Part shown: one piece after another, positions 6,006 to 56,300 of the stretch
Numbering within the stretch: position 1 is the first letter of the stretch
Layout of the letters: the number at the start of each line of letters is the position of its first letter
NCBI GenBank assembly: GCA_951799445.1
Contig: OX637291.1
Coordinates: 13,456,501-13,520,500, forward strand
Direction of reading: 5' to 3'
Length of the DNA stretch: 64,000 nt
Source of the DNA: Pseudisothecium myosuroides
Lineage: Eukaryota; Streptophyta; Bryopsida; Hypnales; Lembophyllaceae
Notes under the pieces: model-generated
What the model was told of the DNA's origin: nothing
The model's input: only the letters and a program-made list of their open reading frames with translations
The model's database searches: none
Made by a program: the position numbers and the translations under genes

Positions 6006-7433
6006 TTACAAGGCCAGTGCTCGTTGGATGGAGAGAAAAACTCCGACTTCTCCTCTTTTCTGTTGGGCAGCCTCTTCATCCAACACTTCTCCAACAGCAT
6101 CCGGCATGATCACAACACAAAGTTCCTCTCTCAACAAGTTACGTGCCATTGTCTCTTGCTGCAAAACGTGAAGAAGTCGTTCGACGTCTTCATGTGATTG
6201 CTGCAATAAAGTATTATGGAGAATAGCACAACAAGTTACTACATTTGGGAGGAAGGTCACATGGAGTTCATACTTCACATGGAGTTCGCGAAACATTTTC
6301 TTCAAATGAGCAAAAGCATTTTCCACGGTCGAACGTACTCGGCTCAAGCGCCTATTGAAGAGCTGCTCAGCCATGGAGAGTTGGTGCTGCTGCCGGTGGG
6401 GAACCATCAACCACGGCAACAGTGGAAAATCGGCGTCACCAACTAGAAATGGAGAGAATCCACGAAATGTGAGAGCCGCATCCCATAAGCCCTACCGTTG
6501 TCCTTTGTGGAAAAGTGTAAAACGGCGGAGTACTCAAGAATTGTTTGTGGATCCAGGCATGCCAACGCAAAGATCCAAAAACCTCTTCGAGCTGCCAACT
6601 ACTGCTTGACATTGCATATTGTAGCCTCCTGTCTTAAAGTAGAAGTAATTTGTTGGTCCAACCTTGGGCTTTGAAATGGCGAATTGTATCCCGTCGATGG
6701 CGCCCAAAACACCAGGAAGGCTGGAGATGTCTTCAAACGCAGCTGCTGTTTCAACAATGGTGTCCCCAGTAGGCCACTTGATTTCCTTTCGCATGACCAC
6801 ATTCACAGCGTGGACAACGTCACAAAGCATAATGGACACAATGCTTCGTCCCACAGCAAAAAGTTCGCTACAAATAAGGAGATTTGCACCATGGCTGAGC
6901 TTGAAAAGCGTACAAGCAACACGTACCGTGATTGGAACTGCAAGTTTGTAATTTGTATCCCGTCTGTGAATTGTAGGACTGAGTAGTTGAGCCAAGGACA
7001 ACACTGCACGCTTTGTCATTCAGAACATGTGAACCCAATGGTCTTCATTATATTCTTCAAGCAGGAATTTTGAAAACCTTGTTGTGCTTCGAGGTTTTAC
7101 CCAGAAGCCGAGCTCATCGTCCAAGAGAACCAAGCTATTCCAAAGGCGGAAGTGCTGTAACACAGTTTGACACACGGCTTGCTGGTCAGTCGCAGCCTGG
7201 TCGAAGCACTCTCTGACCACGGCTAAGTCGTCGTCTACAGCGTCTTGTACAACTTCGTCAATGGTATCCTCGAGTGTGCATTGTACGTTCATAAGAATGA
7301 GCAAAATGAACGACGCCAGGGAAAGCACGTCCATTGAGTTACCAAGAAAATCCATTTCTACCAGTGGCGAAGTAGCAGTCAACCTGCAAGGCACGAAATT
7401 GCAGTAGGTGAGTGAGAAATTTGAAGTCACCAA
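6006..7433 (-). pseudogene. PIF/Harbinger DDE transposase, interrupted by three stop codons
   Basis: One continuous minus-strand frame runs from 7433 to 6006, broken only by stops at 7020-7022, 6534-6536 and 6489-6491, with no frameshift. Visible landmarks of the DDE_4/HARBI1-type nuclease are GAIDGIQ (first Asp), FLDLCVGMPGS, GDADFPLLPWLM (Asp) and RSTVENAFAHLKK (Glu). The position after PGS, usually containing HD in this family, reads NN here, so the copy may have lost a key residue as well. An upstream intron is likely: an acceptor-like CTTGCAG precedes the block near 7385. The first two stops could have arisen from arginine codons by a single C-to-T change. The enzyme would cut and paste the element by binding its terminal repeats; this copy should be inactive. 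Confidence 0.88.
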
Positions 7434-13664: not shown

Positions 13665-14579
13665 ATGGAGATCCCGAGGGGAGGATTACTTTCCTTGATG
13701 TTTAATGATGAGGGAGGGGGGAGTTCTCAAGGAACTCAGGGAGGAGGAAGTTCTCAAGGAACTTAGGGAGGGGGAAGTTCTCAGGGAACTCAGGAGGGAA
13801 GCTCTTGTGGTACAGGGAATGTCAGGAGAGAGTGGAAAGACACTACAGTGAGATTTCTAATTGACTTATGTTCTAGCTTTTATTGGAAGTATGACAGGAA
13901 GGCATTTAAGCAATCCAATTGGCAGTTATTTGCTAGGGAGTTGAATACCCAATTTCCTGAAGAGCCGCAGCGCACATGGCAGCAAACGAGAGATAAATGG
14001 GGGAGCATGAAGACGATCTATCAGAGGGAGAAGCTGAAGGAACAGGAGACGGGAGCGCCACCATCGACATGGCAGCCTTGGTTTGAGTTGTTTGACCAAA
14101 TGTATTCTGGAACAGCTAGAATACATGGGGTCCCACATGGTGTGGACCAAGGGATGAGGATGCAGCATCAGGAACACGTGGTTCTCAGTGACGATGGAGA
14201 GGACGCCGTGCCTGGTACTCCTCAAGTTCCTCCCATTCCACCCGCTGCCTCGTCGCAGTCCCCTCGCACAAATGCCGTGAATCAATCGGGTGTTCAGGGC
14301 CAGGTGAACCAAAGCACACAGAAAAGGAAGCGGAAGTTGGCATTAGGAGATGAAAACATTGCCTCAGCCTTCAAGGACTTCTCGAAAGGGATTTTGGAGG
14401 TTGAGAAGATGAAGATGAGGTTAGCAGAGAAGATACTTGACAGTGACAAAGAGGGGAGGCAGATGATGATGAGGGCTGAGATAGAGAGTAGAGACAGGAT
14501 GATGGAGAATCAATTGCAGATGGCAGCTTTGTTTGTAAATGCTCTGAAAGACAAGGACTCTGCTGGGAGTTCTAAGTAG
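13665..14579 (+). pseudogene. Myb/SANT-like protein of the 1.7-kb element, one in-frame TAG
   Basis: The ATG at 13665 opens a 304-residue frame interrupted only by TAG at 13764-13766 (likely CAG to TAG), inside a threefold GGGSSQGTQ repeat. After the stop the frame is open to 14579. Residues about 50-130 resemble the Myb/SANT-like domain found with plant Harbinger elements (REWKDTTVRFLIDLC, FPEEPQRTWQQTRDKWGSMK), followed by a P/S/Q-rich linker and a basic patch KRKRKLALGDEN. A long Met/Glu-rich helix (residues about 225-295) is a likely coiled coil. Expected role: DNA binding and nuclear delivery for a transposase supplied elsewhere. A GTG start at 13848 downstream of the stop is less likely. 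Confidence 0.72.
13710..13800 (+). repeat. about 33-36 bp in-gene tandem repeat encoding GGGSSQGTQ
   Basis: Three consecutive units built on GGAAGTTCTCAAGGAACT within the Myb/SANT-like ORF; the second unit holds the TAG. A GGTACAGGG remnant suggests a decayed fourth unit. Confidence 0.75.
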
Positions 14580-21176: not shown

Positions 21177-21867
21177 TGGCGGCGACAAGTCGGGGTATTG
21201 TTGTGTCTTCAGCGTTGCAAAGGAGAGTAGTGGCTGATTTGAACAAGCCTCCCTGCGGGAAAACGTCGTCTTCGTTGCCGCGAATGCGAGGTTTTGTGCT
21301 GCGGAGTTCCCGAAGCTTCCGAGCCTTAACTTCCGCACGATCCAGAAATCACCAAAGCTGAAGCGATCCGCGTCGCGTGTGTTCATGAGAATTAGCTCCG
21401 CGCCTTCAGCGATGCTCCAGAGCAACAACTACTTCACGTCCAACGGGTTTGAAAATTTCACGTCCAAGGGGTTTGGGAATTACATGTCCAAGAAACTGCA
21501 GGCAGACGAGGAGATTTTTAAATTCGACGACGACGACGACACTGGGGTTGCAGTGGACGAGGATGATTCAAGCCCAGCGATGGTGGACAGAGTGAACGTG
21601 GTCTTGGCGGATATCGTCGACGGCCAGAAGTTCCTCAAGGAAACGGGGCGGACGAAGGCGCGCCCCATGAAGCGTCGCGCGCTCGTGGTGTCGCTGGCGC
21701 TGGGAGCGTTGCGAGAACCGCTCAACAGTGTCGACAGCCGCCTGGGGAGCTTGCGACGCACGCCGTCGACTGGGCGGATGTCGCGCACGCCGTCCGCGTC
21801 GGGATTCGCGCTTACTGCGCAGTTGATGTCGCAGATGTCGTTCGGATCGCCTCACTACACTGAATAG
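21177..21867 (+). pseudogene. duplicated unrecognised gene, copy 1: frameshifted, 3' end replaced by a MITE
   Basis: Homologous to the intact copy at 27840-28484. The ATG at 21177 opens the same N-terminus (MAATSRG), but about 5 extra bases near 21326-21334 shift the frame and give a stop at 21359-21361. The rest continues in another frame (21379-21867) with the same landmarks: an acidic FDDDDDTGVAV run, SSPAMVDRVN, TGRTKARPMKRR and LGSLRRTPSTGR. Its last four codons and TAG stop lie inside the terminal repeat of a CACTA-like MITE that starts at 21853. It could still make a shorter protein from ATG 21385, which would lack the basic N-terminus. Function unknown. Base composition is far richer in GC than the flanks, as in copy 2. 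Confidence 0.7.
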
Positions 21868-27504: not shown

Positions 27505-27839
27505 GGGCTCCTTCGCTGCCTTTCAGTTCATTCGGACACATTATTTTCTCAATCGTCGAGCGCGGATTTCGCTTCGTTTGTATTTGGGACTGTGGGTGTC
27601 GTCGTCGCTGTGATCTCTAGAGGAAATACAAGAGGGTTGGTTCTACTTGAAATTGCGTATCTTCGCCACCAACTAGTACGAGTTTTGGGGACCAACTCGT
27701 GAAAGTTTGACAAGGACTTGGGTAGCTTTGGCATCAGTTGTCGAGGTTGCAGTCTGAATCGTAGTAAACAGGTTAGGTTGCTGTGATTGGAATCACAGAG
27801 ACAAGACGGTTGTGATCGAAGTTTTTTATATTAAGGAAT

Positions 27840-28484
27840 ATGGCGGCCACAAGTCGGGGACTCGTTGCGTCTTCGGCGTTGCAAGGGAGGTTTATAGCGA
27901 ATTTGAACAGGAGCCGTAGTAGCAGGTGGTCTTCGTCATCTGGAGCCCGGGGTTTCGTGATGCCGAGTTCCAAAAGCTTCCGAGCCTTTCGCACGATCAA
28001 GAAATCGCCTCGGCTGAACCGGTCCTCCTCCCGCAAGTTCACGAGACTTAGTGCAACGCCTTCAGCGATGCTGGGCGACAACTACTTCATGTCCAAGAAG
28101 GTTCCGCAACAAGACGACGTGATGAGAACATTCGCCAACGACGACGACGACGCTGGGGTTGCAGTGGGCGAGAATGACTCGAGCCCGGCGATGGTGGACA
28201 GCGTGAACGAGGTTCTGGCGGAGATCGTTGATGGGCAGAACTACCTAAAGGAGACGGGGCGGACGAAGGCGCGCCCCATGAAGCGGCGCGGGCTCGTGGT
28301 GTCGCTGGCGCTGAGCGCCTTGCGAGATCCAATCAACAGCATCGACGGCCGCCTGGGCAGCTTGCGACGCACGCCGTCAACTGCGCGGCTCTCGCGTACG
28401 CCGTCCGCGTCGGGATACGCACGCACTGCGCAGTTGATCTCGCAGCTGTCGTTCGGATCGCCTCACGGCAATGATATGCACTAA
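27840..28484 (+). CDS. unrecognised single-exon protein, 214 aa (intact duplicated copy)
   Basis: The ATG sits in a plant-like context (ATATGGCGG). The first ~75 residues are rich in Ser/Arg with almost no acidic residues (MAATSRGLVASSALQGRF), like an organelle-targeting peptide; this is inference. Then come an acidic patch (NDDDDAGVAVGENDSS), the segment VNEVLAEIVDGQNYLKETGR, a basic KARPMKRRG, a helix-like LVVSLALSAL, and two RTPS repeats (LRRTPSTARLSRTPSASG) that look like phosphorylation or docking sites. The diverged copy at 21177-21867 preserves these same blocks, so they are probably the functional part. No known domain is recognised and no function is offered. High GC compared with its flanks and a good TATA box support a real host gene. 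Confidence 0.8.
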   Translation: MAATSRGLVASSALQGRFIANLNRSRSSRWSSSSGARGFVMPSSKSFRAFRTIKKSPRLNRSSSRKFTRLSATPSAMLGDNYFMSKKVPQQDDVMRTFANDDDDAGVAVGENDSSPAMVDSVNEVLAEIVDGQNYLKETGRTKARPMKRRGLVVSLALSALRDPINSIDGRLGSLRRTPSTARLSRTPSASGYARTAQLISQLSFGSPHGNDMH

Positions 28485-41766: not shown

Positions 41767-44043
41767 TTATGCATGAGATCTACTCCTTAGCTCTACCATT
41801 GCTTTCCATATCTCAGGTCCTCGACTACATTCTTGAGGGCGTATTTGGTGGGGATGTTGTAGTTCTTGCATCTTCAAGGACCTCCTCTCCCATGCATCCC
41901 AAGGTCGACGAGTACAATGCATGAGTCGTTCATCATGTGACTTTGATGGACGATGACATTGTACCAATTTTTTAGGAAGTAGACCATGTTGAACTTGTAA
42001 TCGTAATTTCCTCGGATATTCAACATTTGCTGAATTGATAAGTCGTGGAGGTATTGGAATGGACTTTGTGCTTATACACTCTTTTCTTTGGGATCCACTT
42101 GATACCTATAAAATAAAGAAGACAATAAATGAAAAAGTTATAATTGCAATAATATGTGTTAAAGTAATCCAACACATGCATAGAACACAATTGTAGCAAA
42201 TGGATAAAAAACCAAATTCATTCATACCTTAGAAGTTGTAGCAATGTGTCTGTTGTCAACATACAACTTTCTTTGTGGAACAATAACATCAACTGAACGT
42301 AGACAAGCTGAAGGAACTATTTTTCGAATTTTGAGTGGCGACGGGGAGCTCACTGGGAGCAATCGCTTTCTCCCGCTTGGTGGACTATCCACCACACCAT
42401 CATTGATGGGTCTTGTGGAGAAGTCCATAGTAGATAGTGCAGTAGCTGCCGAGACCATAATGTGACCCACACCGCTTTGAGATAATGCATATTGTCCGTA
42501 TTCTAAAATGGAATCCACCGACGCATTACACTTGGAAACACTACCAGTATATGGTACGGAACAATCACGCAAATCCTGAAGGGCACAAAAGTCAGTGTGA
42601 TTACAAAGAATAAAGGATAGACAATTGGAATATAAACAATAAAACAACTCGAAATGAATTAAACAATCATCCATTTTGCAAGACGACTATGATAGAACTA
42701 TAATCGATACACTTGTCTTTAATGAAACACCATAGCAATAGATAAAATGCACAAATGCAAGGAATATTGTTCAGTATTAGCAACGACTGGAATGATCCTT
42801 AACTAGCATCTTAGACTCCTCTATGGCGTCTATAAGTTCATCGTATTCTCGTGTATCCTGCTCCTCAACAAGCATCCGCCGTCCAATGTTGTCATTCTTC
42901 CAAAAGGACAATAGTCCACGATCCTTGGTGCCATGCAAGCATGTAATCCAAGGCAAAAGCTCATCCAACAAGAAAGTGTCTTTAAAACCATCTCCTTCCT
43001 TTGACCACGAATCCGACAGCACAACGTTTTCAGGCTCGTTCAGAACATGCTTCTCAGGACTATCGTCTACCATAATAGTATTGCCAATAGTAAACTTTGA
43101 GTTCTGTGCATCGGACAATTTGTCTAGAGGTTTGAGGAACACGCCTTTGTCGGTTCCCTTCACTTTCAAAGTTGTGATGTTTCCTCGCGGACCCCTACAC
43201 TTCAGATTGTCGCAAAACTCTTGCCCAAGGATACTCCATGGTGTCTCTAATCCTCTAAATAGGTACTCGCATATGAATTTTGTTGTAGAAGTCATCATGG
43301 AACTCCAAACAGAAATGTATGCGACTGTGGCTAATTGTCGGAGGAATTCCTCGCAATGAGGACAAACATATACAGCTTTTGAACCAATAGATACTGGAAA
43401 AACGCTAGAATGTGGCTCCGAGAGATCATTGTAGACTGTGCCCTTAGGAAGATTTTTCTTTTCCTTAGATACACAAAGGATCCCATTCAGGTCTAGAATG
43501 ACATTGAGCCACCTTCTTCTCGGCCTAGAAGCGAGCGGAGGAACGATAGGCTCCTATGTTGCACCTATACATATTTTTGAAAGATCGCTCCTCTGTTAAA
43601 ATCAAGGCAGAGAAATACGCCAACAGTTGTTAGTAAACATTTGAACAAAAAATAGAAACACAAATGAAGAGACTCAAACAGTAGAAGATCCAAGTCACAA
43701 GAACAAATATCTCAATAGATGCACATTAAAATAAAGAAAAGTTGACCACTTACAATTTCCTCAGACGTAGGACTTTGTAAGGATTCTTTAGTGCATACAT
43801 TATTTGCTGGAGGCGGTATATGAACCTCCATGAGAACATCATCTGGAATATTCACATCAACCTCCATATCCTCTTGCAATTGGACTCCTTGAAGTGACAC
43901 TTCCATGTTAGGGTCGATTCTTCCACCAGAATTTGGATGGTTTGATCTTGGAACACATGAAGGGCTCTTTGGGAAGGACACATTTGAGGGATCAATGGTA
44001 GAAGGTGGAAGATGTTGGGGCACTATGTCCTCATTAAGAGAAC
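41767..44043 (-). pseudogene. exons 2-5 of an FCP1/NIF-type HAD phosphatase-like gene (one in-frame TAG)
   Basis: Exons on -: B 44043-43754, C 43592 to about 42780, D 42575-42228, E 42105-41767. B starts with two bases of a split codon; the B/C and D/E junctions are phase 0. Donors and acceptors are good (ATT then GTAAGT; AACAG; CTTCAG; AAG then GTATGA; TATAG). The end of C is unresolved: the frame stops at 42777 unless a donor lies just before. Exon C encodes the HAD/FCP1 core: ILDLNGILC (motif I, with Asn where DxDGT has its second Asp), VWSSM (motif II), VDDSPEKH (motif III) and a LLDELLPWI tail. FCP1-type enzymes remove phosphate from proteins such as the RNA polymerase II tail; the Asn makes activity doubtful. 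TAG at 43554-43556 breaks the frame before the HAD domain. Confidence 0.7.
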
Positions 44044-44592
44044 CTGCAAATTATTACAAGTGGATAATGAGTAGTTTCCAAAACAAATGTAGATTTACAC
44101 TTCAAATCTTATGAAAATATATTATGTTCACAATCTAATGCACATAAGTGTGGATTCATATCAAAAATCACCAAACAAAAGTCGCACTTATAATTTATAT
44201 ACATGTAACTATGGATTTACATTTATAATATAAATGAAAAAAATCCAATATTCATATTTACATACACTTAAGTAGTTAATTATGAATTTACAATTAAAAT
44301 CTTGAAAAGAAAAAATGTAATACTCACAAATTTTAAAAGGTGAAATTGGATTTTACATATTGTCGCAAGGTAAATTTTTGGTTTTTTGTAAGTTATCTAA
44401 ATCTTGGAACGGAAACCGTGATCTGGGATCCGGATTCAAGTAGGAGGTAACCGATAACCGGAAATTAACTAATGGAACGGAATAGATGACAATCCGGATT
44501 TGATCTGAATCTGAACCGGATTAGAGTTAGAACGGATCTGAGTTGGATCGGAATGGGTCAGGAACGGATTTGGTCATGATGACAGATCAGAC

Positions 44593-44599
44593 TATATAT
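44593..44599 (+). promoter_or_regulatory. TATA box upstream of the LTR ORF (5' LTR)
   Basis: TATATAT, 277 bp before the LTR ORF start codon; the equivalent in the 3' LTR is 53042-53048. It could drive the LTR ORF, the genomic RNA, or both. Confidence 0.55.
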
Positions 44600-44875
44600 G
44601 GGCTGACCAATCCAGTGGCCACTCTTTTTCAATCTTCATTTGCGGAAATCTCGCTCCAGCGCGTACTTAGCCTCTCTTCCCAGCGTTTTGCTTTCTTGTT
44701 TTGAGTTGGTTTGTGTGTGCGTGTTAGTGAGTTAGAGCGCGCAGCGCTTTAGTGTGCGTTGCAGGTTTAGAGGTATTCCGGTTGAGATCGGAAGAGCGAA
44801 GGTGAGAAACGGGACGTGCGGCTAGGAGAGGGAAAGGTAGCCTCAGTTAGAATCCGGTTAGCACAGTTCGTGTCC

Positions 44876-46570
44876 ATGCCTCAGCTCCGTAAGAGTAGAG
44901 CAGGGCCGTCCAGTTCCTCCGCAGCAGAAGTAAAACTCCGGAAGGTGTGTCCGGTTATTCCAACGGACGAGAAGGAAAAGGAGAACCTGATGGAGGATTT
45001 GGCCAAGATGGGCTGCGGAGGACTGATCGATAAACCCTGGGGGTTTAGGGAGGAGCAGATGATTCGAGAGTTACTCGGAAAGCTCTCCAACCAGTTTGAG
45101 AGAACTCTCCGCGGAAGTCCGGGCAACTGGACGGAGGAGATGTGGAAGGCCGTGTATGAATTCCGGTCTGGAGGTCGAGGGATGGCCTCCTCGAAGGAGG
45201 GTTACACTCGGGGGAAATTCCGGTGCGACGTGGACTCCAAAGATGGGCACGCGGTGGCAGACTGTCTGGACGACCGACATCGGAACCTTCTCCAGTTCCT
45301 GGTTCCGATCATCCACCCGGAGAAGCCGACGAGGGTGACCATCGCCATCGGGAACCTCATTTTCGGAGCCCTGAGCGGGGAACGGAAAGTGGACTGGGCC
45401 AGGGTTTTGTTCGACCTGGTCAACCGGCTCATTCCGAAGATCGGAGGAAGTAGACCGACTCCGTTGAGTCCCTACCTCGTCCATCTGTACAAGCACCATC
45501 AACTCCTCACGGATACGGAGGAGAAGGAGTGGAAGATGCAGGAGTCACTCCTGAAATATGGAGAATCGGAATCGGAAAAAGAAGAACAGGAAGAAGTATC
45601 CGGTTCCGAGGAGGAAGAAGAGGAAGAGGAGGAGCTACACCGGCCGCAGCACAAGCGGCAGAAGACGACACCTCCTAACCGGAGAGGAACCCCAACCCCT
45701 CCGGTTGAGACCTCCAGCCCAGGGAAGAAACCGGTTTCTGAAGAACCGGGTCCTTCCGGATCGGATCCGACGGATCCGTTCAACCAGCTGGTCAACATCC
45801 TGAGTGATGTGCGAGCAGACTGGACGGTGAAGAAGCTGATTCTGAATCAGATCAGCGAGCTGGTGGGAGCACCAGTAAACAGCAACCTGGCAGGAGTGGT
45901 TGCAGATTTTATCTCCAGCCCGGATGAGATCCGGAAGCAAGAGGCGGAGATCCGACGACTCCAGGAGGAGAACGAGTCGTTGAAGACGGAAATGTTGCTC
46001 CTCAAGGAGGACATGGCTACCACCCGGGAGATGGCAGAGGCTACCCAAAAAGTAGCGGAGGATGTGAAGGCCACATTCGGAGCGACCGGAGAGGCTTTCA
46101 CCAAGTCAAAGTTGTTTGACGAGGGAGTCCTCAAGGAGAAAAAGATATCCGGGACCAGGTTGGTCCGGATTTTGACAGACTACTCCGAAAAGGTGGAGTT
46201 AGTCATGATGGACACGCGAGAGGCTGCAAACCGGATGGAGGAGAGCAGCAGGAAGCTGAACGGAGTGACGTTGTCACGATCGTTCCATCTGTCCGACCTT
46301 TCAATGCCCGGATCTTTTCCGAACGTGGGCATTCCAACGGAAGGAAAGGATCGGACTCCCCAGTCGAAGAAGAGTGGGAGGAAACTCGCGCACACCATCA
46401 ACCTGGATTCGTCACCGGATCTCCCAGAACGTGAAACAGGGGAGCGGAACCGGAACCTGACGGACGTCTTCGAACAGCTTGGAGCGGACCCACCCAGAAG
46501 TCCCACACTGAACCCGGGGAAAGATCAAAGTATGGATCTGACCCCAGATCAGGGTGAGGACCAAGAATAG
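44876..46570 (+). CDS. LTR-encoded protein, 564 aa, unknown function (5' LTR copy)
   Basis: The first ATG is at 44876; the open frame extends 20 codons upstream without one. The N-terminal ~200 residues look globular and mostly helical (WGFREEQMIRELLGKLSNQF, HPEKPTRVTIAIGNLIFGAL, VDWARVLFDLVNRLIPKIGG). This recalls helical domains in extra ORFs of plant Ty3/gypsy elements, but the link is only by eye. Then come a Glu-rich run (about residues 225-255), a basic KRQKTTPPNRR that could be a nuclear signal, a Pro-rich linker, a coiled coil (about 345-400) and a charged Ser-rich tail. After TAG at 46568 the same frame is open for 24 more acidic codons to 46645, so the stop may be recent. It has no zinc knuckle, protease or membrane segment. 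The identical protein is encoded at 53325-55019. Confidence 0.8.
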   Translation: MPQLRKSRAGPSSSSAAEVKLRKVCPVIPTDEKEKENLMEDLAKMGCGGLIDKPWGFREEQMIRELLGKLSNQFERTLRGSPGNWTEEMWKAVYEFRSGGRGMASSKEGYTRGKFRCDVDSKDGHAVADCLDDRHRNLLQFLVPIIHPEKPTRVTIAIGNLIFGALSGERKVDWARVLFDLVNRLIPKIGGSRPTPLSPYLVHLYKHHQLLTDTEEKEWKMQESLLKYGESESEKEEQEEVSGSEEEEEEEEELHRPQHKRQKTTPPNRRGTPTPPVETSSPGKKPVSEEPGPSGSDPTDPFNQLVNILSDVRADWTVKKLILNQISELVGAPVNSNLAGVVADFISSPDEIRKQEAEIRRLQEENESLKTEMLLLKEDMATTREMAEATQKVAEDVKATFGATGEAFTKSKLFDEGVLKEKKISGTRLVRILTDYSEKVELVMMDTREAANRMEESSRKLNGVTLSRSFHLSDLSMPGSFPNVGIPTEGKDRTPQSKKSGRKLAHTINLDSSPDLPERETGERNRNLTDVFEQLGADPPRSPTLNPGKDQSMDLTPDQGEDQE

Positions 46571-46810
46571 AGCGTGGACCAAGGCGAAGACGAAGTCATG
46601 GACGAAGGAACGGATCAAGGAGTAGATCCGGTTATGATAGGATAGTTAGGATTTTAGTTGTAAATATTTGTTAGTTAGGACCGGACCGGATTTGATCCGG
46701 ATGTGCCTGGTCTAGATCGGATGTTTTCCGGTCTGGCCGGCTCGGCGGGGACCGAAAGTTCCGCGCGGACTTTCCGGGCCGCTTTATGTTGACTTTTTGA
46801 GTTTTAAAAT

Positions 46811-46840
46811 GTATATAGTCAGTCTCTGCGAAGGAGACTG
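46811..46840 (+). promoter_or_regulatory. second TATA-like site with adjacent stem-loop in the LTR
   Basis: GTATATAG at 46811-46818 lies just before an inverted repeat CAGTCTC..GAGACTG at 46820-46840. It sits downstream of the LTR ORF and could be the promoter for genomic RNA, or a structured 3' end signal. Also present at 55260-55289. Confidence 0.4.
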
Positions 46841-47856
46841 GGAGTCTTTTCCCTTGAGTTTTCATGCATTTTCTATTGATTTCTTGTTGTACGTCTCTCC
46901 CGCGCGTGGCAGGGCTGTTTTGGTGAGGAGTTAGGAAAATGTGTGCAGATTCTAGAGAGATTTCTCCCCTTGGTGTGTTTGTTTTGCTCTTATGTGCATG
47001 TGAGTGGGTTTTCTAAGTGTTGGGAGCGGATTTCAGTTCCTCAGCGCCTCTACAGTTCACGATTCCGGGCGAGAAAACCGTTGTTAGGCTAGGCGGATAG
47101 GGAAGGAGTCCTTAAACGCGCTAGAACTCCTGGATAGGAAATCCGGTTGAGTGCCCGATCTCCCGTGAGGTCTCGCTGCCCTAGTTGGTAAACGGAAGAA
47201 CTTTAGTTGATGTTGGAACGGACGAGTTCGCTTGTAACCACCTAACTCTGCACGGAGGGAACTTGGCATCAAGGTCGTTGTAGTATGAGAGGATCGTACG
47301 GGGGGTCTTTGTGTGACCTGCCAACCGGATCGCTGTCCGGGTGGCTGTGAGAGATCAAACCGGATCCGCGCTAGTGTAGGAAGTAGTGGATTAGAGAAGT
47401 GGGTCTTCAGCCACTATAAGTCACGGAAGGAGTGGCGGGCCTGCCACTCTCAAAAGCAAGCGACGAACCCTCTGATGGTGAAACAGAGGCTAAACTAAAC
47501 CGGAGTGGAGTGAGAGTACGTGTGTGAGGACCGGATCGGATCGATCCAGAGGAGTTCCAGGATCAGAAGTGTTAGGATCCTGGGTCGTGGAAGTTTTACG
47601 GGACCGAATAGCTTGACAGACCGGAAGAAATAGAGAGAGGTCTGGTCGTTGTTTTCGGTGTGTTGTTGTTTCCGGTTTTAGATCTAGGACCGGAAAGGAG
47701 AAATTGGATACTGGCTGAGCTTAAGTTGGGAATAAGGCTAGACACTTCACAGAATCTCGTGGGTTCGATCTTTAGAGTCATTTTGTTATGCTTTAAAGTG
47801 GTTTTTGGGAGTATAACAGGGAATTCGCTTACTCTGTGCTGCGACACGCAAAAATC

Positions 47857-47874
47857 TGGCGCCGCTGCCGGGGA
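47857..47874 (+). promoter_or_regulatory. primer binding site for tRNA-Asp
   Basis: TGGCGCCGCTGCCGGGGA starts 10 bp after the 5' LTR. It differs by one base from the complement of the plant tRNA-Asp 3' end (TGGCGCCGTTGCCGGGGA). Confidence 0.88.
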
Positions 47875-47988
47875 TTCTAAAGCTGTCAGTGTTCGTTCCT
47901 AGTAGCAAAGTTAGTAGTTGTTTTATTTTCTGTCTTGTCTTTTCCGGATTGAGATTTGTTTTTTGACGAAGAATCGGATTTCGTATTC

Positions 47989-49425
47989 ATGAGAAGAAAT
48001 ACAGGAAGTGAAAGAAGGTCTGAGCGATTGAAGAAGAATCAAGGAGAATCGTCTGGACCTGGTTTTAGTGATCCGGATAACTCTGATCCGGGTGACCAAC
48101 CGATTTTTGTACTTGCGCCTGGAGAGCAGATTGAAAGTCCGAGATCGGGGAATACTCCGTCAACTTCTGAACGAGGATCTGAACCGGAAGGGGAAGAACC
48201 GGATTCGGAAGAGGAAGAAGTCATGACCCGGTTAAGATACAAACGTTACAAAGGCGACGGTAGCCAAGATGCGGACGAATGGCTGTGCGAGTTTGAATCG
48301 ACTGCACTCGCCAACCAAGAGAATGAGGCGGCCCAGCGAAGAATCTTTCAAGGATTGCTGAAGGGGGAAGCTCTCAAATGGTACCAAGATGTTCCGGATC
48401 TGATCCGGAATAACTGGGATCAGCTGAGAACGGACTTTCTGCAAGCATTCCGGGAGGTTGGCGGAGAAGCCAGAGCTTTGGGCCGGTTGAGCACATTGAC
48501 GATGAAATCGTCCGAATCCGTGCGAAGGTACGGGCAGAGAGTGAAAGCTCTCATGCAGAAGTTAACCACTGAGATTGCTCCTAGTTTGCAGGTGGAGTGG
48601 TACGTTGCCGGATTACCCGAGTCAATGGGATTCTTGATCCGACAAACGCGCCCAAGAACGCTCAGAGAGGCCATGGATGCTGCAACCAATTACGAGAATT
48701 CAGCGCAGTCACTCCGGAAGTCCCTGAAGCGGAGCGAAGAGCAAGCCAGAGGAAAGGGCAAGAAGATCGACCGGAAATCGAAGCATCGAAAGAAAGTCTC
48801 AGACTCGGAAAGCACTTTTGAGTCGACCGGATCGGAAGTTTCCGATCGGAGTTCATCCAGTTCGGATACGGAACGGAGTGTTTCACCTCCCCGACGTTCG
48901 TCCAAGAAGGGGCAGAGTCGAAAGACCGTTGTGAAAGTGAAGGCAGAGGAGACGGATTCTAAGAAGGCAATCAAGAAACTCCAAGACACATTGGAGGCGA
49001 TCAAGGTCAACATCGCAGAGAACCGGAGACCAAGACGGATTGTCCCGACTTCCCGATCCAACGTCTGGTGTGGAAGGTGTGGCGAACCGGGTCATTACCC
49101 GAGCGAGTGCCAAAGAACCAACCCGAAGCACGTTCACTTCGTGTATCCTGAAGAAGAAGAGGTGTACTACACCATGGCACCTGAGGAAGAGGAGGAAGTT
49201 TACCAGATTCAGCCAGCTTATGGGAGAGGGAAAGGGATTGCTGTTCCGATCCGATCCAACATGCTGAACCGGAATTTCCTACCCGGTCCTAGTCAAGGGG
49301 TCATGATGCAGCAACCGATGCGAGCGTATCCGGATAGACAAGTGGTGATTTGTTATGGCTGTGGAGAACCGGGACACTATGCCAATAACTGTCCTAACAA
49401 GGGAGTAGCTCAAGGTGCGCCATGA
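47989..49425 (+). CDS. gag: Gag polyprotein, 478 aa, cut short by TGA
   Basis: ATG at 47989. The acidic Ser/Glu-rich N-terminus is followed by a retrotransposon Gag capsid-like domain (about residues 75-200; DADEWLCEFESTAL, GLLKGEALKWYQDV, ESVRRYGQRVKALM), a basic linker, and two CCHC zinc knuckles: CGRCGEPGHYPSEC at residue 361 and CYGCGEPGHYANNC at residue 455. The stop at 49423-49425 is followed in the same frame by a third CCHC-like motif (49435-49476), so this TGA looks like a premature stop in an originally longer frame rather than the natural end. Gag would form the particle and bind RNA. Confidence 0.85.
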   Translation: MRRNTGSERRSERLKKNQGESSGPGFSDPDNSDPGDQPIFVLAPGEQIESPRSGNTPSTSERGSEPEGEEPDSEEEEVMTRLRYKRYKGDGSQDADEWLCEFESTALANQENEAAQRRIFQGLLKGEALKWYQDVPDLIRNNWDQLRTDFLQAFREVGGEARALGRLSTLTMKSSESVRRYGQRVKALMQKLTTEIAPSLQVEWYVAGLPESMGFLIRQTRPRTLREAMDAATNYENSAQSLRKSLKRSEEQARGKGKKIDRKSKHRKKVSDSESTFESTGSEVSDRSSSSSDTERSVSPPRRSSKKGQSRKTVVKVKAEETDSKKAIKKLQDTLEAIKVNIAENRRPRRIVPTSRSNVWCGRCGEPGHYPSECQRTNPKHVHFVYPEEEEVYYTMAPEEEEEVYQIQPAYGRGKGIAVPIRSNMLNRNFLPGPSQGVMMQQPMRAYPDRQVVICYGCGEPGHYANNCPNKGVAQGAP

Positions 49426-49596
49426 ATCCTTCCATGCCAGAATTGCCAGGAGTATGGACATCCGGAGGATCAATGTCTAAAACCAGTACAACCGCGACCG
49501 GTTTACAAGCAAGTCTAGATTCTTCCCAGGGAGCAGACCGCACTCAACTACGGTCACTCTACTGGAACGAAGAATCCGGAGAAATGACGGTGCGAG
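49426..49596 (+). other. gag-pol junction with further in-frame stops
   Basis: In the gag frame this segment encodes a third zinc-knuckle pattern (C-x2-C-x4-H-x4-C), then TAG at 49516-49518 and TGA at 49585-49587, before pol continues in the same frame. Readthrough of three stops in a row is unlikely. Confidence 0.75.
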
Positions 49597-52500
49597 GTGG
49601 AGCTGCCAAGAGGAGCGGAGAGCGTGGTCAACCGAGTATCGACCCGCAGTTCCACCAGGAACCAATCCGGTCGTACCATTAGGAGTAGTAAGAAGAAGTC
49701 GAGAAGGAAACCGGAATCGAGTAGCGATTCGGATCGCCCTTCTCCAGAGCCTAGACTGGAACCAGAGTTAGTTCACTCTGAGGAAGGGGTAGGCAGTAAC
49801 CGGATTCCGATAGATATCAGCGCAGAGATCCGAACGGAAATCTCTGGACCGGATATATTACGGAATCAGAAGAAGGTTAGTTTTAGTGACACACCGGTGA
49901 TCATTAATCCGGATGTAAATACGCATGAGTATAACATCATCCAGGATATAAAGGATCAGAAGGCGAATGTCACGATTGGACAGCTCCTGCATGACAACGT
50001 GATGTATCAGAAGCTGATCCGAGACGCTTGGACCCGGAAACGGAGGAAGAAGGTGAAGCTGCCAGTGGTCGCAGTTAACTTTTCTCAACCGGAAGATTCC
50101 GGAGCTCCAGAAGTCACTGTGGAGATAGAAGGATGTGCGATCCCAAATGTTCCGATCGATGGAGGATCGGGAGTGAACCTGATGCTGGAGGATACAGCAT
50201 TTGAACTAGGATTCACCACCTTCGAAGCCACGGAACAAGTTCTCAGAATGGCGGACCAGTCACGAGTAAATCCGGTCGGGAAACTTTCACAAGTTCCAAC
50301 CCGGATTGGAGGAAAAGACTACCTGCTGAATTACGTTATTATACGTGTTCATAAAGGTAGACCTTTTCCGATGTTACTCGGTAGACCCTGGTTATATTCC
50401 GCTCGAGTACTTGTGGATTGGGGTGCCAAGGAACTGGTGGTAGGGAAATCTTCCAACCGGATTCCGTGGACCACTGAGAAGCATTTAGGAGAGACGAGTG
50501 ATTCGGATGGATACACGACGGACTGGTCGGATCCGGAGGATTCCGCCACCAGTTATTTCGTGGATCCATTCGAGCACCAGTCCGAGACGAACTATGGATT
50601 TTCCGAGGCTGTGTTAGAACATCATCCGGAAGAAATCCAGAAACCAGTGGTAGAAGATCGATCTCTGGGAGAGTCGAGTGTTCCGCTCACAGCCGAGTGG
50701 ATCGCTCAACAGATCAGGACCGGAAATCTACCGGTTAGTCAGAGTGAAACAAGAGAATCCGGATGGGGAAATTTAGCTTCTTTTCCTGAGGAAGTTTACG
50801 AGGAGAAAATCAAACCGGTTGTTTCACCCACTGAGTATGAGAAGGAGAGTATTGAACCCAACAGGAGTTTTTACCTCAGTAAACTCTTGAAGGATACGGA
50901 GAAATCCGGTTATACTACACTTCTGAAGGAGTATCTCGACGTTTTTGCTTGGGAGCCATCCGATCTGAAGGGCATTCCCCCTCATTTAGGAGAACACCGC
51001 ATCGACCTGACAGAAGGATCTGTTCCGGTTCGACAGCGACAGTACCGGCTCAACCCCAAGTATTCGTTGATGGTGAAGGAGGAAATCGATCGGTTGCTGG
51101 AAGCAGGATTCATTTATCCGGTCCACAACTCTGAATGGGTTTCTCCTATCGTGGTGTATTCCTGTAAGAAGTTCCGACACTATCTACTCGGATACAAGGT
51201 GATTTTTCACACAGATCATGATTCTTTAAAATACCTTGTCAACAAACCGGATTTGTCAGGCCGGATTGCTAGATGGATTTTGCTTTTACAAGAGTTTGAC
51301 TACGAGGTTGTAGTGAAACCGGGAAAAGCAAATGTGAATGCGGATTATCTGTCGAGACAGAGGGGACAAAAATCCGTAGCGGATATTTCCGCTCAGTTTC
51401 CGGACGAGTTCCCGGATACTGTGGAAGATCCGGTTTTTGTAGAAAACCAGGATCCTCCTTTGGTAGAGGTCTTTCACCTCAACAGCGAAACTGTTTCAGA
51501 GTATCAAGATATCATAGATTACCTTGTGAAATCTAGATACCCGGAACAGATGAGTGTAGAGGAAAAAGAAATTTTCCAAAGAAAAGTAGCTCCTTATACC
51601 CTGATTAGAGGAGTGCTTTTCAAATTAGGAACAGATGATATTCTCAGGCGATGTCTAGAACCTGCGGAACGGAAGAAAGTGATACAAGCTCTTCATGCCG
51701 GAGATTCAGGAGGACATTTTGCCTTTGTTAATACAGTGAACCGGATCCGATCAACCGGATACTGGTGGCCGTATTTACACCGAGATGTTAGGAATTTTGT
51801 TAGAAGTTGTGATCAGTGTCAGCGGACAGGAGCACCCTCCTTCCGGAATCACTGGCCGCTGACTCCTATCATTCCCCTAGCACCTTTTGAGAAATGGGGG
51901 ATAGATTTTATTGGACCTATTTTTCCGGTCAGTACACGGAAAAAGAGGTACATTATTCTAGCCACGGATTACGCGACCAAATGGGTAGAGGCCAAGGCAA
52001 CACGGAAGAACGATGCGGAAACTTTAGCAAACTTTCTGTTTGAAGAAATCCTCATGCGTTTTGGACACCCATTGGAGCTGGTCAGCGACCGGGGAACCCA
52101 TTTCCTCAATGATGTCATCGTCGACCTAACGAACAAGTATCTTATCAAGCACCGGAAGACGACTCCTTACAACCCGAAAGCGAACGGATTGACGGAGCGG
52201 GCAAACGGGATAGTTGGTAAGATCTTGAACAAGATGGTTTCCGCTCACAAAACGGATTGGGATCGGAAACTACCTTCGGCAGTTCACGCGTACAACACCA
52301 CAGAGAAGACCACAACCGGAAAAACTCCGTACTTTTTGGTTTTCGGTCAGGAGGCAGTCCATGGAGTGGAGTTGGAGGTGGAAACATTTCGGGTCATAGC
52401 AGCTCGAAGTGCAGTATCAAGGACGGATACTCTTCCAAGACTTCTCGCCATTGAAGAACTGGAAGAAATCCGGAATGCAGCCCTGGAAAGAACCCTGGGA

Positions 52501-52764
52501 GTGCAGAACAAGCGCAAGGAAAATTACGATCGGAAAATCCCAGCGGATCACGGAATCCGAGAAGGAGGTCTGGTTCTTCTCTATGACAACCGTCATAAAG
52601 ACTTTCCGGGTAAGTTACATACTCGCTGGATGGGACCTTTCCGAGTCAATCAAGTTTTCCTAAACGGATCTCTGCAACTCCAGAATCTGCAAGGACAGTG
52701 GCTTGATACCCGTGTAAACGGATCGAGAGTGAAGAAGTATATCGAGGCTTCTTCGTCAGATTAG
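49597..52764 (+). pseudogene. pol: Pol: protease, truncated RT/RNase H, intact integrase
   Basis: Open for 1,055 codons with no ATG at its start (49597 is GTG). Aspartic protease: PIDGGSGVNLM, Asp at residue 188. RT is present only as its N-terminal part (about residues 445-519, ending SEWVSPIVV). At about 51156 it jumps to KKFRHYLLGYKV and TDHDSLKYL, the end of the RT/RNase H module. The RT catalytic YxDD-type motif and the first RNase H acidic residues are missing; the gap keeps frame. RNase H tail NVNADYLSR remains. Integrase: HHCC zinc finger (His 700 and 707, Cys 738 and 741), core D770, D831, E867 with 35 residues between the last two, and a C-terminal WMGPFRVNQV module. No chromodomain. 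Such an element could bring protease and integrase but not reverse transcription. Confidence 0.9.
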
Positions 52765-52796
52765 GATTGATAGTGTTCGCGAGGACGCTCACAGAT

Positions 52797-52809
52797 GAGG
52801 AAGGGGTAA
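52797..52809 (+). promoter_or_regulatory. polypurine tract
   Basis: GAGGAAGGGGTAA immediately before the 3' LTR; the usual plus-strand primer site. Confidence 0.8.
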
Positions 52810-55800
52810 TGTCGCAAGGTAAATTTTTGGTTTTTTGTAAGTTATCTAAATCTTGGAACGGAAACCGTGATCTGGGATCCGGATTCAAGTAGGAGGTAAC
52901 CGATAACCGGAAATTAACTAATGGAACGGAATAGATGACAATCCGGATTTGATCTGAATCTGAACCGGATTAGAGTTAGAACGGATCTGAGTTGGATCGG
53001 AATGGGTCAGGAACGGATTTGGTCATGATGACAGATCAGACTATATATGGGCTGACCAATCCAGTGGCCACTCTTTTTCAATCTTCATTTGCGGAAATCT
53101 CGCTCCAGCGCGTACTTAGCCTCTCTTCCCAGCGTTTTGCTTTCTTGTTTTGAGTTGGTTTGTGTGTGCGTGTTAGTGAGTTAGAGCGCGCAGCGCTTTA
53201 GTGTGCGTTGCAGGTTTAGAGGTATTCCGGTTGAGATCGGAAGAGCGAAGGTGAGAAACGGGACGTGCGGCTAGGAGAGGGAAAGGTAGCCTCAGTTAGA
53301 ATCCGGTTAGCACAGTTCGTGTCCATGCCTCAGCTCCGTAAGAGTAGAGCAGGGCCGTCCAGTTCCTCCGCAGCAGAAGTAAAACTCCGGAAGGTGTGTC
53401 CGGTTATTCCAACGGACGAGAAGGAAAAGGAGAACCTGATGGAGGATTTGGCCAAGATGGGCTGCGGAGGACTGATCGATAAACCCTGGGGGTTTAGGGA
53501 GGAGCAGATGATTCGAGAGTTACTCGGAAAGCTCTCCAACCAGTTTGAGAGAACTCTCCGCGGAAGTCCGGGCAACTGGACGGAGGAGATGTGGAAGGCC
53601 GTGTATGAATTCCGGTCTGGAGGTCGAGGGATGGCCTCCTCGAAGGAGGGTTACACTCGGGGGAAATTCCGGTGCGACGTGGACTCCAAAGATGGGCACG
53701 CGGTGGCAGACTGTCTGGACGACCGGCATCGGAACCTTCTCCAGTTCCTGGTTCCGATCATCCACCCGGAGAAGCCGACGAGGGTGACCATCGCCATCGG
53801 GAACCTCATTTTCGGAGCCCTGAGCGGGGAACGGAAAGTGGACTGGGCCAGGGTTTTGTTCGACCTGGTCAACCGGCTCATTCCGAAGATCGGAGGAAGT
53901 AGACCGACTCCGTTGAGTCCCTACCTCGTCCATCTGTACAAGCACCATCAACTCCTCACGGATACGGAGGAGAAGGAGTGGAAGATGCAGGAGTCACTCC
54001 TGAAATATGGAGAATCGGAATCGGAAAAAGAAGAACAGGAAGAAGTATCCGGTTCCGAGGAGGAAGAAGAGGAAGAGGAGGAGCTACACCGGCCGCAGCA
54101 CAAGCGGCAGAAGACGACACCTCCTAACCGGAGAGGAACCCCAACCCCTCCGGTTGAGACCTCCAGCCCAGGGAAGAAACCGGTTTCTGAAGAACCGGGT
54201 CCTTCCGGATCGGATCCGACGGATCCGTTCAACCAGCTGGTCAACATCCTGAGTGATGTGCGAGCAGACTGGACGGTGAAGAAGCTGATTCTGAATCAGA
54301 TCAGCGAGCTGGTGGGAGCACCAGTAAACAGCAACCTGGCAGGAGTGGTTGCAGATTTTATCTCCAGCCCGGATGAGATCCGGAAGCAAGAGGCGGAGAT
54401 CCGACGACTCCAGGAGGAGAACGAGTCGTTGAAGACGGAAATGTTGCTCCTCAAGGAGGACATGGCTACCACCCGGGAGATGGCAGAGGCTACCCAAAAA
54501 GTAGCGGAGGATGTGAAGGCCACATTCGGAGCGACCGGAGAGGCTTTCACCAAGTCAAAGTTGTTTGACGAGGGAGTCCTCAAGGAGAAAAAGATATCCG
54601 GGACCAGGTTGGTCCGGATTTTGACAGACTACTCCGAAAAGGTGGAGTTAGTCATGATGGACACGCGAGAGGCTGCAAACCGGATGGAGGAGAGCAGCAG
54701 GAAGCTGAACGGAGTGACGTTGTCACGGTCGTTCCATCTGTCCGACCTTTCAATGCCCGGATCTTTTCCGAACGTGGGCATTCCAACGGAAGGAAAGGAT
54801 CGGACTCCCCAGTCAAAGAAGAGTGGGAGGAAACTCGCGCACACCATCAACCTGGATTCGTCACCGGATCTCCCAGAACGTGAAACAGGGGAGCGGAACC
54901 GGAACCTGACGGACGTCTTCGAACAGCTTGGAGCGGACCCACCCAGAAGTCCCACACTGAACCCGGGGAAAGATCAAAGTATGGATCTGACCCCAGATCA
55001 GGGTGAGGACCAAGAATAGAGCGTGGACCAAGGCGAAGACGAAGTCATGGACGAAGGAACGGATCAAGGAGTAGATCCGGTTATGATAGGATAGTTAGGA
55101 TTTTAGTTGTAAATATTTGTTAGTTAGGACCGGACCGGATTTGATCCGGATGTGCCTGGTCTAGATCGGATGTTTTCCGGTCTGGCCGGCTCGGCGGGGA
55201 CCGAAAGTTCCGCGCGGACTTTCCGGGCCGCTTTATGTTGACTTTTTGAGTTTTAAAATGTATATAGTCAGTCTCTGCGAAGGAGACTGGGAGTCTTTTC
55301 CCTTGAGTTTTCATGCATTTTCTATTGATTTCTTGTTGTACGTCTCTCCCGCGCGTGGCAGGGCTGTTTTGGTGAGGAGTTAGGAAAATGTGTGCAGATT
55401 CTAGAGAGATTTCTCCCCTTGGTGTGTTTGTTTTGCTCTTATGTGCATGTGAGTGGGTTTTCTAAGTGTTGGGAGCGGATTTCAGTTCCTCAGCGCCTCT
55501 ACAGTTCACGATTCCGGGCGAGAAAACCGTTGTTAGGCTAGGCGGATAGGGAAGGAGTCCTTAAACGCGCTAGAACTCCTGGATAGGAAATCCGGTTGAG
55601 TGCCCGATCTCCCGTGAGGTCTCGCTGCCCTAGTTGGTAAACGGAAGAACTTTAGTTGATGTTGGAATGGACGAGTTCGCTTGTAACCACCTAACTCTGC
55701 ACGGAGGGAACTTGGCATCAAGGTCGTTGTAGTATGAGAGGATCGTACGGGGGGTCTTTGTGTGACCTGCCAATCGGATCGCTGTCCGGGTGGCTGTGAG

Positions 55801-56295
55801 AGATCAAACCGGATCCGCGCTAGTGTAGGAAGTAGTGGATTAGAGAAGTGGGTCTTCAGCCACTATAAGTCACGGAAGGAGTGGCGGGCCTGCCACTCTC
55901 AAAAGCAAGCGACGAACCCTCTGATGGTGAAACAGAGGCTAAACTAAACCGGAGTGGAGTGAGAGTACGTGTGTGAGGACCGGATCGGATCGATCCAGAG
56001 GAGTTCCAGGATCAGAAGTGTTAGGATCCTGGGTCGTGGAAGTTTTACGGGACCGAATAGCTTGACAGACCGGAAGAAATAGAGAGAGGTCTGGTCGTTG
56101 TTTTCGGTGTGTTGTTGTTTCCGGTTTTAGATCTAGGACCGGAAAGGAGAAATTGGATACTGGCTGAGCTTAAGTTGGGAATAAGGCTAGACACTTCACA
56201 GAATCTCGTGGGTTCGATCTTTAGAGTCATTTTGTTATGCTTTAAAGTGGTTTTTGGGAGTATAACAGGGAATTCGCTTACTCTGTGCTGCGACA
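52810..56295 (+). repeat. 3' LTR (3,486 bp)
   Basis: Same length as the 5' LTR with five transitions found and no indel. Contains the second copy of the LTR ORF. Followed by CATAT. Confidence 0.95.
53325..55019 (+). CDS. LTR-encoded protein, 564 aa (3' LTR copy)
   Basis: Same predicted protein as 44876-46570. The three base differences (53726, 54728, 54815) are all third-position changes in Arg, Arg and Ser codons. Its own upstream TATATAT is at 53042-53048. As it is downstream of pol, it could be read from a 3' LTR promoter or as the end of the genomic RNA. Confidence 0.8.
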   Translation: MPQLRKSRAGPSSSSAAEVKLRKVCPVIPTDEKEKENLMEDLAKMGCGGLIDKPWGFREEQMIRELLGKLSNQFERTLRGSPGNWTEEMWKAVYEFRSGGRGMASSKEGYTRGKFRCDVDSKDGHAVADCLDDRHRNLLQFLVPIIHPEKPTRVTIAIGNLIFGALSGERKVDWARVLFDLVNRLIPKIGGSRPTPLSPYLVHLYKHHQLLTDTEEKEWKMQESLLKYGESESEKEEQEEVSGSEEEEEEEEELHRPQHKRQKTTPPNRRGTPTPPVETSSPGKKPVSEEPGPSGSDPTDPFNQLVNILSDVRADWTVKKLILNQISELVGAPVNSNLAGVVADFISSPDEIRKQEAEIRRLQEENESLKTEMLLLKEDMATTREMAEATQKVAEDVKATFGATGEAFTKSKLFDEGVLKEKKISGTRLVRILTDYSEKVELVMMDTREAANRMEESSRKLNGVTLSRSFHLSDLSMPGSFPNVGIPTEGKDRTPQSKKSGRKLAHTINLDSSPDLPERETGERNRNLTDVFEQLGADPPRSPTLNPGKDQSMDLTPDQGEDQE

Positions 56296-56300
56296 CATAT

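What the first reader, a model, noticed from the sequence alone, without database searches (positions are those of the whole stretch)
44361..56295. Retrotransposon whose LTRs each encode a 564-codon protein
LTRs normally carry only regulatory sequence. Here a single long ORF (44876-46570 and 53325-55019) fills about half of each LTR, giving two copies per element. A helical N-terminal region, a Glu-rich block, a possible nuclear signal and a coiled coil suggest a nuclear or regulatory protein. Extra ORFs in plant Ty3/gypsy elements are usually between LTR and gag or after pol, and an ORF inside the LTR is rare (mouse mammary tumour virus sag is the familiar case). The protein could be a trans-acting factor used by RT-less copies.
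Basis: partly seen in the sequence, partly recalled or inferred. Interest (0 to 1): 0.92.

Follow-up and report, generated by a model that had tools for sequence, protein, structure and literature searches.

The report
Retrotransposon LTRs encoding their own protein
A plant retrotransposon family carries a conserved protein gene inside each of its long terminal repeats, so even lone repeats left in the genome keep the gene, and the protein looks like a DNA-binding factor that may recognise a short motif packed into the element's own DNA.

The parts
44356..44360 (.). target-site duplication CATAT (left copy; right copy 56296-56300)
   Evidence: sequence
44361..47846 (+). 5' LTR, 3486 bp, TGTCGCA...TGCGACA
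44593..44598 (+). TATA box 1, upstream of the LTR ORF; TSS expected about 30 nt downstream (inferred)
   Evidence: present in 22 of 22 LTRs of the family and, at LTR position 276, in the 53% family copy L040
44625..44875 (+). presumed leader of the LTR-ORF mRNA, free of ATG (32 of 5000 shuffles are ATG-free); 17 of 22 LTRs share this
44876..46570 (+). LTR ORF, 5' LTR copy, 564 aa (589 aa in 17 of 20 other copies)
44927..45577 (+). N-terminal globular helical domain, residues 18-234; best structural match VANC21
45920..46273 (+). long helices, probable coiled coil, about residues 349-466
46812..46817 (+). TATA box 2, downstream of the ORF; candidate start of the genomic RNA (inferred); LTR DNA from LTR position 2450 onward matches the 53% family copy best
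47857..47873 (+). primer binding site TGGCGCCGCTGCCGGGG, 10 nt after the 5' LTR (tRNA-Asp-like, recalled)
47989..49422 (+). gag (Retrotrans_gag, CCHC knuckles), cut by stops at 49423-49425 and 49516-49518; several homologues end where the frame stops at 49585-49587
49588..52764 (+). pol: protease-like region (by eye), RNase H, H2C2 and rve integrase; RT core missing (930-nt in-frame gap near 51150)
52797..52806 (+). polypurine tract GAGGAAGGGG before the 3' LTR
52810..56295 (+). 3' LTR
53325..55019 (+). LTR ORF, 3' LTR copy, identical protein
44361..52809 (.). dispersed self motif AWCCGGAW: 47 strand-matches at 40 places in 5' LTR plus internal region, coding and non-coding, both strands

Best explanation
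The LTRs of this Ty3/gypsy lineage carry a complete gene. A promoter near the LTR start (TATA 1) drives an mRNA for a 564-589 aa protein with an N-terminal DNA-binding-type domain, an acidic linker and a coiled coil. The protein dimerises through the coiled coil, binds the AWCCGGAW motif spread over copies of the family, and prevents or removes silencing (DNA methylation) of those copies, in the way VANC proteins act on VANDAL transposons. A second TATA box behind the ORF would start the genomic RNA, placing the ORF in U3. Because the gene is in the LTR, each insertion carries two copies, and recombination to a solo LTR keeps the gene, so many solo LTRs can supply the factor in trans. Shown: LTR location in three families, conservation and purifying selection in the window family, intact ORFs in solo LTRs, motif saturation. 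Inferred: promoter use, dimerisation, binding of this motif by this protein, anti-silencing.
Confidence: 0.5

Rival explanations
1. A DNA-binding self-recognition factor with another job: it binds the motif to activate the LTR promoter or to guide the integrase or pre-integration complex, or it represses its own family (copy-number control).
For: Same evidence for the domain and the motif; two TATA boxes in the LTR. Dense sites over gag and pol would also suit packaging or chromatin compaction.
Against: The fold match is to an anti-silencing protein. Sites cover the whole element, not only the promoter.
Confidence: 0.25
2. An RNA-level accessory protein (export, packaging or translation of the genomic RNA, Rev- or Gag-like), with the motif enrichment unrelated to the protein.
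For: Accessory proteins in retroelements often act on RNA (general knowledge). The motif lies in a transcribed element, so the RNA also carries it.
Against: The near-palindromic motif is found on both strands in similar numbers (65 CCGGA and 49 TCCGG on the + strand), as expected for double-stranded DNA. No RNA-binding family among the listed Pfam matches of the LTR ORF (the list is capped).
Confidence: 0.12
3. The motif reflects codon usage or a mutation bias of this lineage and has no binding partner; the LTR ORF is a conserved protein of another function.
For: Order-3 composition accounts for the CCGGA count. A set of retrotransposons without the LTR ORF was not examined as a control.
Against: Information is confined to 8 positions. 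CCGGA and its overlapping words head all 512 5-mers under synonymous-codon shuffling. The motif is as dense in non-coding as in coding parts (31 CCGGA in 2140 bp) and recurs in LTRs that do not align by blastn.
Confidence: 0.1

Closest known systems
VANC21 and related VANC proteins of Arabidopsis VANDAL (MULE) transposons (passages of PMC5735166 and PMC10398659 read)
   Different: LTR retrotransposon instead of a DNA transposon; gene sits in the LTR; no DUF1985 or sequence match; motif on both strands and also in coding DNA; a coiled coil follows the domain (whether VANC has one was not checked).
Mouse mammary tumour virus sag (recalled; only listings seen)
   Same: ORF inside the LTR, so two copies per provirus; possibly U3.
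   Different: No relation was tested; the protein here has a soluble helical domain and coiled coil, in a plant element, and is kept in many solo LTRs.
TRP28 (PF04195) proteins of Retand elements (PMC11963269: abstract, first part of the structural Results section and Discussion read)
   Same: Accessory protein of a plant gypsy lineage, suggested to bind DNA; some clusters have SMC-like matches.
   Different: Antisense ORF between pol and 3' LTR; no PF04195 match here.
Retrosat2/RIRE3 ORF0 (PMC3485330, passages read)
   Same: Gypsy element with LTRs over 3.2 kb and an extra ORF upstream of gag-pol.
   Different: ORF0 is described as a separate ORF upstream of gag-pol, not found outside grasses and divergent in sequence.
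eORFs of plant LTR retrotransposons (PMC6317226, passages read)
   Same: Extra ORFs of 250 codons or more are common in OTA elements.
   [quoted passage not shown] an LTR location is not named in the passages I read, so some may have been counted without notice.

Membership tests
VANC anti-silencing proteins | encoded by the transposon whose copies it targets | tested here: inconclusive
   the ORF lies in the LTR of the element that carries the motif; that it targets these copies is not shown
VANC anti-silencing proteins | a short motif dense in own family, rare elsewhere | tested here: met
   5.56 per kb against 0.127 per kb genome-wide; 0 in the rest of the window; that this protein binds it is not shown
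VANC anti-silencing proteins | motifs arrayed in one orientation, mainly in non-coding DNA | tested here: not met
   both strands, coding and non-coding alike
VANC anti-silencing proteins | DUF1985 (PF09331) or other sequence similarity | tested here: not met
   22 domain sequences, hmmscan to E 10: 4 families, none DUF1985; PDB profile search lists no VANC
VANC anti-silencing proteins | same fold as DNA-bound VANC21 | tested here: inconclusive
VANC anti-silencing proteins | expression causes loss of DNA methylation at targets | not testable with these tools
   no methylome or expression data
LTR-encoded accessory genes (MMTV sag type) | complete ORF inside both LTRs | tested here: met
   window copy, and other LTRs of the family
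LTR-encoded accessory genes (MMTV sag type) | ORF in U3 | tested here: inconclusive
   two TATA boxes, before and after the ORF, both found in the 53% copy L040 but not all in L044 or the 34% copies; no RNA ends known
Retand TRP28 accessory proteins | PF04195 domain | tested here: not met
   not among matches of the 22 domain sequences up to E 10
Ty3/gypsy LTR retrotransposon | LTR, PBS, gag, PR-RT-RNaseH-INT order, PPT, 5-bp TSD | tested here: met
   window copy except RT (protease by eye only); RVT_1 and RNase H in full copy L045
OTA/Tat lineage | additional archaeal-type RNase H (aRH) | tested here: inconclusive
   no second RNase H family in the window's pol; the full-length copy was scanned only over 350 codons; no RT tree was built, so the lineage is not assigned

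The most novel reading that the evidence does not exclude
A land-plant retrotransposon lineage evolved or acquired a sequence-specific self-recognition and anti-silencing system whose protein is encoded in the LTR itself and whose target motif has spread over the entire element, coding sequence included. Solo LTRs are then not dead remnants but a large set of self-contained genes that keep the family, including gag/pol-dead copies, out of silencing.
Probability: 0.4. Interest if true: 0.94.

Novelty: new variant of a known kind. Interest (0 to 1): 0.88.

Why it matters
LTRs are treated as regulatory DNA and solo LTRs as inert scars. Here the LTR is a protein-coding gene under purifying selection, and most sampled copies are solo LTRs, nearly all of which still encode it. 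If the protein is a VANC-like factor, transposon-encoded, sequence-specific anti-silencing extends from DNA transposons of flowering plants to LTR retrotransposons of (probably) a bryophyte. It also comes with a ready test: a named 8-bp motif and a named protein. Motif saturation of coding sequence would be an unusual case of DNA-binding selection on a whole mobile element.

Tried and rejected
Host-gene capture and chance ORF: rejected by the homologue family, selection and LTR shuffles. Pfam and PDB relatives by sequence: searched without useful hits; the PADLOC, PHROGs and NCBIfam libraries were not searched. The full-length model gave only coiled-coil-type matches, so the domain was folded alone. 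In viral and prokaryote contig collections no candidate was confirmed as a relative (LTR ORF; pol: 34; gag: 35, 65), nor in plasmids (LTR ORF). Rfam (at gathering scores) and tRNA scans of the window were empty. The NLS idea holds only for part of the family. Literature: ten searches. Those for ORFs inside LTRs (11, 27, 62, 66; listings of 20 of 25, 21 of 21, 1 of 1 and 12 of 15 papers) showed, from titles and starts of abstracts, mouse mammary tumour virus and other papers but no plant LTR-encoded protein; of these lists only PMC3485330, PMC11963269 and PMC6317226 were opened (passages or sections), the rest were not. Passages of PMC12885004, PMC12859917 and PMC13317346 were also seen. PMC9016345 and PMC3773815 were not held.
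Full report
What is there. The window lies in a 388-Mb genome of 222 contigs (C5:13456501-13520500). At 44361-56295 there is one LTR retrotransposon. The two LTRs are 3486 bp each with 5 differences. They begin TGTCGCA and end TGCGACA, and the element is flanked by CATAT on both sides. A primer binding site follows the 5' LTR by 10 nt, and a polypurine tract abuts the 3' LTR. Between the LTRs are gag (Retrotrans_gag, zinc knuckles) and pol with RNase H, H2C2 and integrase domains. Among the 120 gag homologues listed the only one with an organism name is from Marchantia polymorpha, so a bryophyte host is likely, by inference.

State of this copy. No RVT_1 is found in pol. A full-length copy (L045) has 930 nt (310 codons) more at this place in the same frame, with RVT_1 and RNase H; the ORF-to-ORF distance there is 9379 against 8449. 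Gag has two in-frame stops where homologues read on. The LTR ORF is intact in both LTRs, with the same protein and three silent differences (chance 0.04 under random transitions). Of 20 other copies 17 read 589 aa; this copy and L009 stop after 564.

The ORF is a gene. 84 homologous protein clusters were found with the single sequence and 112 with the profile, 124 in all, from sources labelled ena, jgi and lgn and one ncbi entry, without organism names. The nearest eleven cover 85-97% of the protein at 44-59% identity; many of the distant ones cover about 77%, some less. No Pfam family matches beyond weak hits, mostly to coiled coils (capped lists in 41 and 73). I fetched 20 genomic copies, the best-scoring after the window's own two out of 40 scored and 958 first-look candidates, hence biased to young copies. 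All 20 keep the ATG; 17 are open to 589 aa, one to 564, and two are cut at 84 and 303 aa. In a search with a distant homologue, 58 of 69 scored matches have no stop inside. Over 210 pairs of 21 copies pN/pS is 0.199. The ORF diverges by 1.2%, the non-coding LTR parts by 2.1 and 2.5%. Variants shared by copies are 9 nonsynonymous and 24 synonymous (omega about 0.17 against a neutral expectation with the observed transition bias). Private variants are 64 and 58, plus 2 stops (omega about 0.50). So the ORF was selected while the family was active; selection after insertion is possible but not separated by this test.

It belongs to the LTR. The 20 copies are complete LTRs of 3481-3487 bp. 16 of 20 are solo LTRs with their own perfect 5-bp TSD; two are the LTRs of one full element, one is a 3' LTR, and one has no matching TSD. 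Rough copy numbers from first-look candidates are 958 for the ORF and 169 for gag, again pointing to many solo LTRs. A second family, seen in one copy (L040, 53% protein identity), has a 3370-bp LTR with TSD CCACA and the ORF sequence at the same place, with one stop in it. A third (L037, L039, L041, 34-35% identity) shows three LTRs of 3.8-4.1 kb with different termini; a search within 15 nt of the repeat borders for TG...CA ends with a 5-bp duplication gave one solution for each, so I read them as solo LTRs. The ORF sequence is again inside, interrupted by stops. L037, L039 and L041 gave no DNA match to the window LTR, nor L040 to L037, by blastn.

LTR anatomy. One TATA box lies 283 nt before the ATG, with an ATG-free leader behind it (32 of 5000 shuffles are ATG-free). 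A second lies 242 nt behind the stop codon. Both occur in L040; the first is in 22 of 22 and the second in 21 of 22 LTRs of this family (20 copies and the window's two); the leader is ATG-free in 17 of 22. The 91% copy L044 has the first but not the second, and an extra ATG; the 34% copies show no match shortly before the ORF. From the second box onward the LTR is better conserved between window and L040 (0.65-0.88 identity per 150-nt bin from position 2551) than the ORF (mostly 0.50-0.71). I infer a promoter for the ORF at the LTR start and a promoter for the genomic RNA behind it, which would put the ORF in U3. The alternative, a long R region as described for Retrosat2 (U3 1-244, R 245-2266; PMC3485330), is not excluded.

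Self motif. I then asked whether this element has a dense motif of its own. In LTR and internal region separately the three top 6-mers are the same: ACCGGA, ATCCGG, AACCGG. In the 8.4-kb element CCGGA occurs 114 times on the two strands; order-1 simulations give 25.5, maximum 45 of 300; order 2 gives 80.7 with a maximum of 120; order 3 gives 128, so at that order the core alone is not in excess. The extended form AWCCGGAW occurs 47 times (40 places) against 1.7, 10.3 and 20.3 for orders 1, 2 and 3, with maxima 7, 21 and 38 of 500, and 0 times in the other 52,085 bp of the window. Information is confined to eight positions. With protein and codon usage held fixed, CCGGA exceeds all 500 shuffles in each of the LTR ORF (23; mean 12.2, maximum 22), gag (19; 8.6, 16) and pol (41; 19.4, 32), and it and its overlapping words head all 512 5-mers. 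Six control stretches of the window peak at z 5.1-7.8, the element at 20.8; a tandem-repeat flank of L040 peaks at 13.7 with another word. Genome-wide AWCCGGAW is at 0.127 per kb, 44 times below the element. The reversed control WAGGCCWA is absent from the element though about as common in the genome (45,738 against 49,344).

Motif and ORF travel together. Among the commonest 5-mers of six LTRs of three families CCGGA is first in four, tied first in one (L041) and second in one (L040, where the overlapping ATCCG leads 44 to 43), at 7.5-13.8 per kb, against 30 in about 40.1 kb of flanks of seven copies, 14 of them in one flank. The base after the core shifts from T (0.43-0.56) in the window family and L040 to A (0.56-0.67) in the 34% family. 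This fits a domain that has kept its core specificity while diverging. A control set of retrotransposons without the LTR ORF was not examined.

Interpretation. The gene, its LTR location, its selection and its presence in solo LTRs are shown. DNA binding is suggested by one structural match and by the motif. Anti-silencing is inferred by analogy with VANC and agrees with the undepleted CpG of the element (497 of 518 expected; rest of window 1263 of 1896), which youth alone could also explain; the 34% family is depleted (0.62-0.71 in its ORF regions). I do not file it as a VANC: sequence and motif arrangement tests were not met. It works, most likely, like one. Novelty: LTR-coded genes (MMTV sag) and transposon anti-silencing factors are known kinds; their combination in a plant LTR retrotransposon, kept by solo LTRs, was not found in the searches named under Tried and rejected.

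Noticed in passing
G000 contig C11 (16.9 Mb): Of 43 listed matches to the L037-family ORF, 29 lie on contig C11, which is about 4% of the genome; a non-recombining or sex chromosome is one possible reason.
   Followed up: no
L038:1-8001: Two copies of a related ORF lie in inverted orientation about 2 kb apart.
   Followed up: no
L039 and L041, 0.8-2.6 kb upstream of the LTR: Direct repeats offset by about 80-350 bp.
   Followed up: no
window 21238-21867 and 27816-28484: Two similar small ORFs (shared MAATSRG start and shared C-terminal stretch) without a Pfam match, apparently a duplicated host gene.
   Followed up: partly
window 6534-7019 (-) and 13767-14579 (+): DDE_Tnp_4-like fragment (below the family cut-off) and a Myb/SANT-like ORF, perhaps parts of Harbinger-type transposons.
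   Followed up: partly
window 42777-43553 (-): NLI-interacting-factor-type phosphatase domain just upstream of the insertion.
   Followed up: partly
G000:C5:13542836-13544530 (L009): A solo LTR on the same contig, about 30 kb past the window element's 3' LTR, also ends its ORF after 564 codons, so the two may be close relatives.
   Followed up: partly
window 49425-49597: Gag and pol lie in one frame and several gag homologues end just before a stop that precedes pol, which would suggest stop-codon readthrough for Gag-Pol.
   Followed up: partly
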